Shown piece after piece: positions 450 to 15,222 of a DNA stretch of 15,222 nt (within the stretch, counting starts at the first letter, position 1; the number at the start of each line of letters is the position of its first letter). The notes under the pieces were generated by a model, which saw only the letters and a list, made by a program, of their open reading frames with translations, was not told the DNA's origin and searched no databases. The position numbers and the translations under genes were made by a program. The stretch comes from Scenedesmus sp. ARA3 (Eukaryota; Chlorophyta; Chlorophyceae; Sphaeropleales; Scenedesmaceae), in assembly GCA_004335835.1 (NCBI GenBank), contig RWJK01000596.1, forward strand, positions 1 through 15,222. Direction: 5' to 3'.

Positions 450-3335
450 ATGACATTGTTGCAGCATGGCTGTGGCTGGCGTAGCCGTACAAGGGAGCTG
501 GCTGAGGCTGATTGTGCATTATCAAGGCTGCAGCAGTACTTGCGCAACATCATGCTGCTGCTGCCGCTGCTGCTGCTGCTGCTGCTGCTGCTGCTGCTGC
601 TGCTGCTGCTGCTGCTGCTGCTGCTGCTGCTGCTGCTGCTGCTGCTGCTGCAGGCCGCTGCTGGAGTCCCTTGACCAGGACCCACTGGGCACCCTCACAC
701 TCTCCTGGATGATGCAGCAGCAGCAGCAGCAGTGCGGTGCAGCAGGACCCAGCCTGCCAGGATCCAGTGCTGCTGCTGCTGCTGCTGCTGCTGCTGCTGC
801 TGCAACACCTGGTGCTTCTCGAGCCAAACGGCCTAAGACTGGACAGCAGCAGCAGCAGCAGCAGCGGAGGCTGCTGAGCTTTGCACGGCCACTGATCATC
901 AGTGAAGCAGCAACTGACAGTATCACCAATACAGCTGCTGCTGCTGCTGCTGTTGCTGACCTAGACCATGCCGCATCTGCAGCAGCAGCAGCAGGCGCAG
1001 CCAGATCCTTCCTGCAAGACACAGTTATTGTAGCGCTGCCACAGGGCGTGCAGTGCAGCTGGAACTTGTGCGCTGGTGTGGCAGCAGAGGCAGCAGCGCT
1101 AGCAGCAGGCGGCTCGGCCATTGCGGCAGCAGCAGCGGCGGCAGCGGCGGCGACAGCACCTGAGCATCAGCAGGTGCGTTGGCAGCGACACGGCAGTGCA
1201 GCAGCCAATTGCAAAGAAATAATATATATTTTTACACTTCATGAGACAACGATGGGCTCGGAGTGTGCATGGAACTCATCCTGCACTCCTCTATCTTCGA
1301 CCTGCAACAATGTACACGTGCGCTGCGTCACCTGTGGCAGTACAATACTTGTATGCTTGCTAACTTGTACTGCCATATTGTACTGCCTTGCTTCTCCCAC
1401 CTGCAGGGCCCCAGCAACATTGTTCACGTGCGCTACGCTGACCTGTGGCGGTACAACCCTGGTGCTGATGGGGCGCTGCTAAAATGTACTGCCATGTTGC
1501 ACTGCCTTCTTTCCTCCACCTGCAGGGTCCCAGCAACATTGTTCACGTGCGCTACGCTGACCTGTGGCAGTACAACGCGGATGTTGACTAAATGTACTGC
1601 CTCGTTTCTCCCACCTGCAGGTTCTCAGCAACATTGTGCGCGTGCGCTACGCTGACCTGTGGCAGTACAACCCTGGCGCTGATGGGCCGCTGCTGAAGTG
1701 TACTGCCATATTGTACTGCCTTATTTCCTCCACCTGCAGGGTCCCAGCAACATTGTTCATGTGCGCTACGCTGACCTGTGGCAGTACAACCCTGGCGCTG
1801 ATGGTGCCCTGAGTCACCGCCACTTCATGGCTACTGCCTGGGCTGGTGTGTGGCCTGTGTTCATGGCAGTGGCAGTGCAGCACAGCACAGCAATACCAGC
1901 ACAGGTGCGCATTGTGCTCCTTTTCCCTCGTATCATGCAACATTGCCATTTCATGGCTACTGCCTGGGCTGGCGTGTGGCCTGTGTTCATGGCAGTAGCG
2001 GTGCAGCACAGCACAACGAGACCGGCGCAGGTGCGTGGGCAACATGCCGCACTTGTCATACACCGGTGTACAGTATAGTATATGCAGCCAGCAGCGTGCC
2101 GGTGGTTCAGCTGCTTTGCAGAGCTCTCATATCTCCATAATAAAAGATTTCCCACCCATGTTGATTACTTTCCTCCGTGCCCGCCGCGCTTACTACACTA
2201 AAGTCGCACCATCACACCAACAAAACAATCCGCCTGTTGCATACCGCTTGTTTGTCTGTCCCGCTTGCAGCACAAGCAGCAGCTGCTGCAGCAGTTGACT
2301 AGCCTGTGGCAGCGTTATCAGCAGCAGCTGGCAGGATGCGGCTTCCCTGGAGGGGACGGGTGCCAGCTGCTGCAGGCCCCAGATGCAGCAGCAGCAGCAG
2401 CAGCAGTAGCCGGCACAGCAGCAAGCGCTGTGGGGTTGATGGCGTACCTTCATGACGTGTACTTTGTCCACGGGGACCGTTCAAAGCCCAGGTGCGCATT
2501 GCCGGACGTTGTTACATTTGACTTTCGCCATTTCTCCAATTGAATGCAGCAGCAGCAGCAGCAGCAGCAGCGAGAGCAGCAGCAGCAGGTGCAGGCGCAG
2601 GCGCTGTGGGGCTGATGTCGTACCTTCACGACGTGTGCTTTGCCCAGGGGGACCGGTCAAAGCCCAGGTGCGGGCGCACCTTGTGTTAGTGTAAAGTGAA
2701 GAGTGTTAGTGTAAAGTGTTAGTGTAAAGTGTTGGTGTAAAGTGTAAAGTGTTAGTGTAAAGTGTTAGTGTAAAGTGAAGAGTGTTAGTGTAAAGTGTTA
2801 GTGTAAAGTGAAGGAAAAAAGTTATGTGTTGCTGTGCACGCACAGTACAGCATGCAAGGCTGCATTGACGCATTATACAGCACCAGCTGTTGTGGGCAGC
2901 TGCCGCAGCTTTGCTGCAATGTTGGGAAACAAGTGCACAGGTGGGGCCTTTGTACTACAAAGCGCTAGTAGCGCACTCTCTGTTCACGCAGCGCTGCCCA
3001 TGCCGTTGGCAGCCGCCGCCCCTGCCCGTCGCCGCGAAGCAGCCACTGCTGCTTCCCTGATTAAGTTGTTTTGCTGCTGCTGCCGCCGCTGCTGTCGCCG
3101 CCGCCGCTGCTGCTGCTGCTGCTGCTGCTGCAGGAGCCCATACGACCTGGCCCGTGACGCCCAGCTGTGGCTCAACGACGCTTTCACCACCCTTGAAGAG
3201 GCGCTGGCCCAGGTGGTGGTGGAGGATGCTGATTTGATTGCAGCAGTTGAGGCGATGGAAGATGAGGGGGAGAGGCAGGTGGCGAGGCGGGTGCTGCGCA
3301 AGCGCTTGGCCAAATTGTCGCGGCAGGCGGCCTAG
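450..3335 (+). CDS. Five-exon gene for an unrecognised Ala/Gln-rich protein of about 397 aa
   Basis: I do not recognise the family. Proposed exons are 450-535, 654-1173, 1740-1904, 2271-2491 and 3134-3335; all phases fit and total 1194 nt including TAG. Exon 2 carries Gln and Ala runs and a basic patch, SRAKRPKTG, that could be a nuclear localisation signal. Exon 3 is a compact hydrophobic and aromatic segment (NIVHVRYADLWQY, HFMATAWAGVWPVF). Exon 4 has a Gln-rich helix (QQLTSLWQRYQQQL) and AYLHDVYFVHGDRSK. Exon 5 is strongly helical and charged, ending VLRKRLAKLSRQAA. Exons 2 to 5 are well supported by CTGCAG or TTGCAG acceptors and AG|GTGCGN donors. Exon 1 is a guess: ATG at 450 with donor CA|GTACTT at 536 gives the right phase, but ATG at 446 with a donor at 481 also fits, and an internal start at Met 709 is possible. 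The 3' end lies opposite the bZIP gene. Confidence 0.6.
567..653 (+). repeat. (CTG)28 tract ending in CAG at the exon 2 acceptor
   Basis: Twenty-eight uninterrupted CTG units run from 567 to 650 and end in CAG at 651-653, immediately before exon 2 of gene 1. The tract stands where a polypyrimidine tract would normally be. All three frames are open through it (poly-Leu, poly-Cys, poly-Ala), so it could be misread as coding. The phase-2 join to 654 favours an intron end. Confidence 0.7.
1301..1697 (+). repeat. Array of 5'-edge copies of gene 1 exon 3, each with an acceptor
   Basis: Three clear copies of the start of exon 3 lie upstream of the full exon at 1740. They begin at 1407, 1526 and 1621, each after a CACCTGCAG acceptor, and a degenerate fourth lies near 1301-1352. 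Each carries the coding segment for SNIVHVRYADLW and runs into the same intron text (TGTACTGCC). Spacing from copy to copy, ending at the full exon, is 119, 95 and 119 bp. The copy at 1407 differs from the full exon at six of 24 codons, five of them synonymous. The copy at 1526 reaches an in-frame TAA shortly after the shared part. Confidence 0.85.
1945..2030 (+). repeat. 3'-edge copy of gene 1 exon 3 with donor
   Basis: This segment repeats the last 28 codons of exon 3 (HFMATAWAGVWPVFMAVAVQ and onward) and ends at CAG|GTGCGT like the true exon end at 1904. By eye, six codon differences are synonymous and two change the residue (Ala to Thr, Ile to Arg). It lies in intron 3, between the exon 3 donor and exon 4. 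Confidence 0.8.
2544..2667 (+). repeat. 3'-edge copy of gene 1 exon 4 with donor
   Basis: After a CAG run, this segment repeats the end of exon 4 (AVGLMSYLHDVCFAQGDRSK against AVGLMAYLHDVYFVHGDRSK) and ends in the same AAGCCCAG|GTGCG donor context. It is more diverged than other copies: about three synonymous and five replacement codons in the clear part. Confidence 0.75.
2683..2813 (+). repeat. 13-bp minisatellite carrying nine TGTAA motifs
   Basis: A short tandem array built on the unit GTGTTAGTGTAAA, with some GTGAAGA variants, fills part of intron 4 of gene 1. Nine sense-strand TGTAA pentamers can be counted. TGTAA is the polyadenylation signal of chlorophycean algae, so the array could act as an intronic poly(A) site or be a chance product of the unit. 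Confidence 0.85.

Positions 3336-15222: not shown

What the first reader, a model, noticed from the sequence alone, without database searches (positions are those of the whole stretch)
1301..15222. Exon edges are copied into flanking introns in all three genes
In 11 of 15 modelled introns, pieces of the neighbouring exon are repeated. 5' edges with the acceptor lie upstream of the full exon, and 3' edges, usually with the donor, lie downstream, so each full exon sits inside a telescoped array. Examples are gene 1 exon 3, bZIP exons 3, 4 and 6, and EED exons 14330-14259 and 12711-12538. Tandem duplication across exon-intron boundaries would make this layout, but finding it at most introns of three unrelated genes suggests a genome-wide process of intron growth.
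Basis: partly seen in the sequence, partly recalled or inferred. Interest (0 to 1): 0.88.

Follow-up and report, generated by a model that had tools for sequence, protein, structure and literature searches.

The report
Exon-edge copies swell algal introns
In a green alga very similar to Tetradesmus obliquus, 43 of 160 introns examined outside this window hold extra copies of the neighbouring exon's edge, likely left by short tandem duplications that splicing would skip, so that introns grow while the gene would keep working.

Summary
In hand-checked models of the window, 11 of 13 introns carry copies of the adjoining exon's edge: 8 of 12 by threshold, 2 more from BLAST rows, 1 more by adding an intron whose upstream exon is unmodelled. 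Outside the window, 43 of 160 introns in 15 of 36 gene models do (16 of 95 in ad hoc stretches). The wrong edge scores in 1 of 236 tests, unrelated introns in 0 of 1564. Detected local repeats are all direct. Spacing is about 130 bp. Copy-bearing introns are longer (median 611 against 342 bp). A T. obliquus protein carries a peptide of one copy, which suggests that array is not peculiar to this assembly.

Best reading: recurrent tandem duplication of segments straddling one splice site, hidden because exon definition would pick the innermost site pair. Sibling copies with similar flanks drift neutrally (35 nonsynonymous, 13 synonymous). Exon and copy differ mostly at synonymous sites (78, 195), and similarity drops at the splice site. 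The present exon is therefore not simply the copies' parent; I infer exon-limited exchange with diverged alleles, or haplotype mixing in the assembly. The process is widespread but patchy.

The parts
14992..15042 (-). EED exon (RAFPVRLVGHPVFSSKQ)
   Evidence: curated; T. obliquus protein P0001
14738..14788 (-). copy of that exon with both splice sites, several changed residues
14520..14539 (-). copy of the 5' edge of EED exon 14330-14259 with acceptor (approximate ends; below the threshold)
14425..14446 (-). copy of the 5' edge of EED exon 14330-14259 with acceptor (approximate ends; below the threshold)
14259..14330 (-). EED exon (VHGNYVDCC...)
14170..14207 (-). copy of its 3' edge
13910..13935 (-). 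copy of its 3' edge
13445..13516 (-). EED exon (IKLWRPLYPS...)
13291..13312 (-). short copy of its 3' edge
13027..13069 (-). copy of the 5' edge of EED exon 12711-12538, with acceptor
12915..12956 (-). copy of the 5' edge of EED exon 12711-12538, with acceptor
12795..12837 (-). copy of the 5' edge of EED exon 12711-12538, with acceptor
12538..12711 (-). EED exon (VFDMPGELQPLWWV...)
12367..12411 (-). copy of its 3' edge with donor
12205..12249 (-). copy of its 3' edge with donor
12035..12079 (-). copy of its 3' edge
11686..11822 (-). 99% copy of the 5' part of the last EED exon; intron side only weakly alike
10945..11577 (-). last EED exon
8887..9004 (-). bZIP exon (MCQLEAEVAAK...)
8633..8677 (-). 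copy of its 3' edge
8535..8579 (-). copy of its 3' edge
7521..7621 (-). old (68%) copy of the 3' edge of bZIP exon 8254-7662
6611..6655 (-). copy of the 5' edge of bZIP exon 6536-6374
6374..6536 (-). bZIP-gene exon (...VGQLQGLLQREAAPRRHRLLCNPN)
6137..6179 (-). copy of its 3' edge
5868..5911 (-). copy of its 3' edge
5623..5707 (-). further copy of its 3' edge
   Evidence: 82% to 6369-6453
1740..1904 (+). gene 1 exon 3 (GPSNIVHVRYADLWQY...)
1301..1690 (+). array of copies of its 5' edge with acceptors
1945..2035 (+). copy of its 3' edge with donor
2271..2491 (+). gene 1 next exon
2597..2672 (+). copy of its 3' edge with donor

Best explanation
Segments of roughly 130 bp that straddle a single splice site have likely been duplicated in tandem again and again, so the full exon stays innermost while copies of its 5' edge pile up upstream and copies of its 3' edge pile up downstream, where they are predicted to be spliced out with the intron. 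A copy holds one splice site and no partner, so exon definition (the last acceptor pairing with the first donor) would ignore it; that makes the duplication nearly harmless and the intron longer (inferred, no RNA was available). Shown in the sample: direct repeats only, the right edge on the right side, nested order, spacing mostly 90-150 bp, longer introns, and neutral drift between sibling copies with similar flanks. Inferred: after or during duplication the present exon came from a different, diverged allele than the copies, because exon and copy differ mostly at synonymous sites and similarity usually falls at the splice site. Exchange confined to exons (the only alignable islands between alleles), or haplotype mixing in the assembly, would do this.
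For: Direct only: 0 inverted among 198 matches in 176 kb and 0 among 149 in 27 loci, 5 of them shared. Right edge on the right side: 3' edge 31 of 160, 5' edge 26 of 160; wrong edges 0 of 116 and 1 of 120; unrelated introns 0 of 1564. Nested order: all 3' copies before all 5' copies in 11 of 11 introns with both. 65 of 81 repeat families inside the non-window gene models span an exon edge. Spacing: 68 of 92 within 90-150 bp, 13 within 220-270, median 130; introns 611 against 342 bp; donor and acceptor dinucleotides kept in 38 of 45 and 40 of 47 copies. Sibling copies with similar flanks: nonsynonymous share 0.73 (bootstrap 0.54-0.80), neutral 0.75 (17 pairs, 5 genes). Exon-copy: 0.29 (0.24-0.38), and 0.31 for those with similar flanks (20 pairs), where neutral copy plus constrained exon predicts 0.58 (82 pairs, 14 genes). 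CCT-epsilon exons, identical in every aligned residue to a T. obliquus protein, carry copies at 8 of 9 scored introns; that protein also holds a peptide matching one copy in 14 of 15 residues.
Against: Few newborn full-length units: no BLAST row in L033-L049 plus window reached 95% identity over 75% of the unit, though L009 and L030 hold units alike on both sides and TRF finds perfect 47-bp repeats at the contig end. Intron flanks of exon-copy pairs are detectably related in only 49 of 92. Copy pairs with dissimilar flanks are not plainly neutral (share 0.46, 0.33-0.55; 35 pairs, 7 genes); I read them as copies from different alleles, untested. Edge-spanning families exceed random placement (65 of 75 seen; 0.41 by geometry, 0.65 after a rough detection correction), so some targeting may be missing from the model. 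Exon definition is not shown; authors of a Volvox study think intron definition prevails there (PMC4378016, passages). The allele step rests on 14 genes.
Confidence: 0.66

Rival explanations
1. Assembly artefact: a heterozygous or mixed culture whose diverged haplotypes were written into one contig piece by piece.
For: Exon-copy differences look like allelic differences (195 S, 78 N). A published assembly of one T. obliquus strain is almost twice the size of another (208 against about 108 Mb; PMC5552973 and PMC5255914, whole texts), which could mean separately assembled haplotypes (my inference).
Against: Sibling copies with similar flanks drift neutrally, with stops, and 14 of 92 copies have lost the splice dinucleotide; pieces of working haplotypes would not. 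Order is nested in 11 of 11 introns, whereas writing out a bubble would put the next exon's 5' edge first. Six copies in a row in L050. One 361-base EED query matched only its own contig and TCP1/Cpn60 exons lie on 11 contigs, about what single gene copies would give (expected gene number recalled). A T. obliquus protein holds a copy's peptide.
Confidence: 0.12
2. The copies are working alternative exons kept by selection on the protein.
For: Exon-copy differences are strongly third-position (209 against 47 and 45), splice dinucleotides are mostly kept, and copy pairs with dissimilar flanks show a nonsynonymous share of 0.46, below neutral.
Against: Copies carry one splice site; only 3 of 81 non-window repeat families hold a whole exon. 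Sibling copies with similar flanks are neutral. Frame-breaking indels in 4 of 100 copies and stops occur. The T. obliquus EED protein holds each of the five modelled exons once.
Confidence: 0.07
3. Ordinary tandem duplication of the gene's own exon edge followed by neutral drift, with nothing else.
For: Layout, direction and spacing. 15 of 82 exon-copy pairs show no synonymous difference.
Against: Predicts a nonsynonymous share near 0.58 between exon and copy and intron flanks diverging about twice as fast; seen 0.29 and an intron-side identity of 0.65 (unrelated introns 0.55) next to exon sides of 0.91.
Confidence: 0.1
4. A mobile or RNA-templated process inserts exon edges next to their source.
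For: Similarity often falls at the splice site.
Against: No inverted repeats; no dispersed copies of the one EED segment tested; no convincing copies across exon-exon joins: 11 of 161 joins passed a loose filter, best score 55 of a possible 88, three of them in the copy-free gene L052.
Confidence: 0.05

Closest known systems
[quoted passage not shown] Ma et al. 2016, PMC4974935: abstract and introduction read)
   Same: A tandem duplication crosses one intron-exon boundary and splicing leaves part of the former exon inside an intron.
   Different: There one event makes a new intron. Here existing introns grow, at 43 of 160 sampled introns, and no new intron position was seen in the two genes compared with T. 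obliquus proteins.
Novel Drosophila intron positions by tandem duplication (PMC2891723, abstract read)
   Same: Regional tandem duplication of coding sequence followed by intronization of one copy.
   Different: Coding proto-splice sites there; whole exon-intron borders and multi-copy arrays here.
Introners (PMC9860276, passages read)
   Same: A genome-wide source of intron sequence in eukaryotes, green algae among them.
   Different: Those are dispersed transposable elements that make new introns; these are local, direct and gene-specific.
Tandem exon duplication / mutually exclusive exons (recalled)
   Same: Repeated exon sequence inside one gene.
   Different: Here nearly all copies are partial and have one splice site.

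Membership tests
[quoted passage not shown]
[quoted passage not shown]
   tested in two genes: EED and CCT-epsilon exons match T. obliquus proteins and the copies lie in existing introns; the 15-residue insertion in P0046 may be a copy annotated or used as an exon
Introners | dispersed similar introns in unrelated genes | tested here: not met
   one EED segment, the only one tested, matched only its own contig
Introners | terminal inverted repeats (some families) | tested here: not met
   0 inverted local repeats at E<=1e-4
Tandem / mutually exclusive exon duplication | complete exon with acceptor and donor | tested here: not met
   3 of 81 non-window families include a whole exon; window 14738-14788 is a further exception
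Haplotype mis-assembly | both copies under coding constraint | tested here: not met
   sibling copies with similar flanks neutral; those with dissimilar flanks intermediate
Haplotype mis-assembly | arrays vanish in raw long reads | not testable with these tools
   no reads available
Exon definition splicing | last acceptor and first donor chosen in vivo | not testable with these tools
   layout only; no RNA

The most novel reading that the evidence does not exclude
Introns of this alga grow by a continuing duplication process aimed at splice junctions, its decoy splice sites are silenced by exon definition in a single-celled plant, and the decoys preserve exon edges of other alleles while the working exons are swapped between haplotypes as islands, making each array a record of both intron growth and allele exchange.
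Probability: 0.33. Interest if true: 0.82.

Novelty: new variant of a known kind. Interest (0 to 1): 0.66.

Why it matters
How introns get longer without transposons is poorly documented (my knowledge of the field). Here the source of the added sequence is legible: it is the neighbouring exon's own edge. T. obliquus is reported to have mean introns of 462 bp against 230-302 bp in the four other green algae tabulated; the passages I saw give no mechanism (PMC5966456). The arrays also offer a natural test of how the spliceosome picks sites among near-identical decoys, and they warn annotators: one public CCT-epsilon protein seems to include a copy as an exon.

Tried and rejected
Two first gene finders failed to train and are not used; the third was trained on homology-supported exons. 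Its window models were poor and were replaced by hand curation. Several counts came from a scorer that let masked letters match each other; eight false rows from L041 were dropped by eye. The main counts were redone with masked letters scoring zero and the window left out, but the sorting of predicted exons into real ones and partial copies was not redone. I still quote from the earlier set the gene-heterogeneity test, the indel count, the splice-site scores and the flank alignments.

Dropped before counting: gene models scoring under 60, exons with coding score 6 or less or under 30 bp, introns outside 60-2500 bp; 9 of 101 copies that missed the splice site by more than 3 bases; 10 of 92 copies without a long enough ungapped match for the codon counts.

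The guess that arrays sit on short contigs failed (Spearman -0.15, p 0.52, 22 contigs); loci on one contig are somewhat alike (362 of 10000 random draws as close). Copies across exon-exon joins: none convincing. Relatives in viral and prokaryote contigs: none confirmed. The bZIP composite found no homologue. Rfam and tRNA scans were empty. A directional codon change was dropped because third-position differences go both ways (83 and 62). Paper searches on this theme; no listed title or abstract start reported such copies in Scenedesmaceae, but most subscription journals are not held.

Full report
WHAT THE WINDOW IS. The window is the whole contig C414 of an 87.27 Mb, 1567-contig assembly. A joined EED translation matches a Tetradesmus obliquus protein at 96% over its full length. 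A CCT-epsilon translation from contig C1032 is identical to the T. obliquus protein in every aligned residue, apart from two split-codon gaps and a 15-residue insertion in the public protein. The organism is therefore likely T. obliquus or a close relative. The window holds EED (minus), a bZIP-like gene (minus; bZIP_2 below its cut-off) and an unidentified gene 1 (plus; no Pfam match).

OBSERVATION. After masking simple repeats, the window has 38 self-matches, all direct. With curated exons, 8 of 12 introns hold a copy of the proper neighbouring edge at a fixed threshold. Two more are seen in BLAST rows, and one further intron upstream of gene 1 exon 3 holds an array, so 11 of 13.

HOW WIDE IS IT? 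I sampled 17 ad hoc stretches (161 kb, L033-L049), proteasome loci and three CCT loci. Local matches were 198 direct and 0 inverted in the ad hoc stretches plus window. A gene finder trained on homology-supported exons gave 36 scorable gene models outside the window, none checked against RNA. A proper edge copy occurs in 43 of 160 introns: 16 of 95 in ad hoc stretches, 14 of 42 in proteasome loci, 13 of 23 in CCT loci, two of which were picked because they looked positive. The wrong edge scores in 0 of 116 and 1 of 120 tests, unrelated introns in 0 of 1564. It is patchy: CCT-epsilon 8 of 9, CCT locus L051 5 of 5, CCT locus L052 0 of 9. Gene-to-gene variation exceeds all of 5000 shuffles (earlier hit set). 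HMM rows show the same thing independently, for example overlapping matches to TCP1 positions 45-72 and 45-100 on C1492.

GEOMETRY. Outside the window, repeat families inside genes are 34 at 3' edges, 30 at 5' edges, 1 both, 10 intron-only, 3 whole-exon and 3 exon-internal. Spacing between successive copies has a median of 130 bp, 68 of 92 within 90-150, 13 within 220-270 and 6 within 150-220; why it is bimodal is unknown. The copied exon part has a median of 47 bp, capped at 90. In all 11 introns with both kinds, the 3' copies come before the 5' copies. Introns with copies are longer, 611 against 342 bp. If units of these lengths fell at random on tolerated places, 41% would span an edge, or about 65% after correcting for the poorer detection of intron-only repeats; 65 of 75 do. 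That excess is suggestive, not proven.

COPIES ARE NOT PLAIN DEBRIS OF THE PRESENT EXON. Beside the splice site, the exon side of copies is 91% identical and the intron side 65%, against 55% for unrelated introns. In EED the last exon's copy is 99% identical over 137 bp and falls to weak similarity at the acceptor. Exon-copy differences fall at codon positions 1, 2, 3 as 47, 45, 209; 195 synonymous, 78 nonsynonymous, 3 of them stops (82 pairs, 14 genes). A neutral copy of a constrained exon should show a nonsynonymous share of 0.58; it is 0.29 (gene bootstrap 0.24-0.38), 0.31 in the 20 pairs with similar flanks and 0.26 in the 51 with dissimilar flanks. Sibling copies with similar flanks show 0.73, the neutral value being 0.75 (17 pairs, 5 genes). 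Sibling copies with dissimilar flanks show 0.46 (0.33-0.55; 35 pairs, 7 genes), in between; I read these as copies taken from different alleles, which is untested. Pairs within an array are not independent. So copies that demonstrably share a unit drift freely, and the extra synonymous divergence lies between copies and the working exon. In L019 a unit whose flank differs at about 5 of 90 bases has an exon part with six synonymous differences and one nonsynonymous. The simplest cause I can name is that the exon now present came from another allele, by exchange confined to exons because introns no longer align. Haplotype mixing in the assembly would mimic this. The nearly doubled size of one published strain assembly fits diverged haplotypes but does not prove them.

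WHY THE GENE WOULD SURVIVE. Each copy has one splice site, usually intact (38 of 45 donors, 40 of 47 acceptors) and, where the dinucleotide is kept, not much weaker than the real one (donor score 6.10 against 6.27, acceptor 5.22 against 6.18, earlier hit set). In this layout the real exon is the innermost acceptor-donor interval. Pairing across exons would choose it; pairing across introns would not. This is inference from layout. The authors of a Volvox study favour intron definition there (PMC4378016, passages).

ARTEFACT? Neutral decay of sibling copies, nested order, an array of six copies and roughly single gene copies in the assembly argue against it. The T. obliquus CCT-epsilon protein contains DNMVRVEQYAMRAFA, matching the copy at L050:8366-8410 in 14 of 15 residues, other copies in 11-13 and the exon in 12. 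That record suggests the array exists in another data set; it may be a mis-annotation there or real use. No reads were available, so the arrays remain unconfirmed at read level.

VERDICT. The finding is real and reaches well beyond the window, but patchily: a recurrent form of a known mutation type, with an unexplained allele signature. Edge targeting, exon definition and allele exchange remain to be tested.

Noticed in passing
L050:8366-8410; proteins P0046, P0086, P0139: A T. obliquus CCT-epsilon protein carries a peptide of an intronic copy, and two relatives' sequences run into the same intron right after the exon. Public models of this gene look disturbed by the array.
   Followed up: partly
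window 3452-3719: The last exon of gene 1, stop codon included, is copied downstream of the gene.
   Followed up: no
window 2683-2810: A 13-bp tandem array (agtgttagtgtaa-like) in a gene 1 intron.
   Followed up: no
window 15111-15222: The contig ends inside perfect 47-bp repeats that resemble an EED exon edge, so the assembly probably stopped in an array.
   Followed up: no
window, throughout: Long CAG/CTG tracts in coding and non-coding sequence.
   Followed up: no
contigs C1274, C924, C1060, C1020, C955: On these five contigs, each with two or more sampled loci, no sampled intron has a copy (0 of 45), while C885 has 4 of 6; C1432, C1417 and C1300 are mixed. Possible regional clustering, weak support.
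   Followed up: partly
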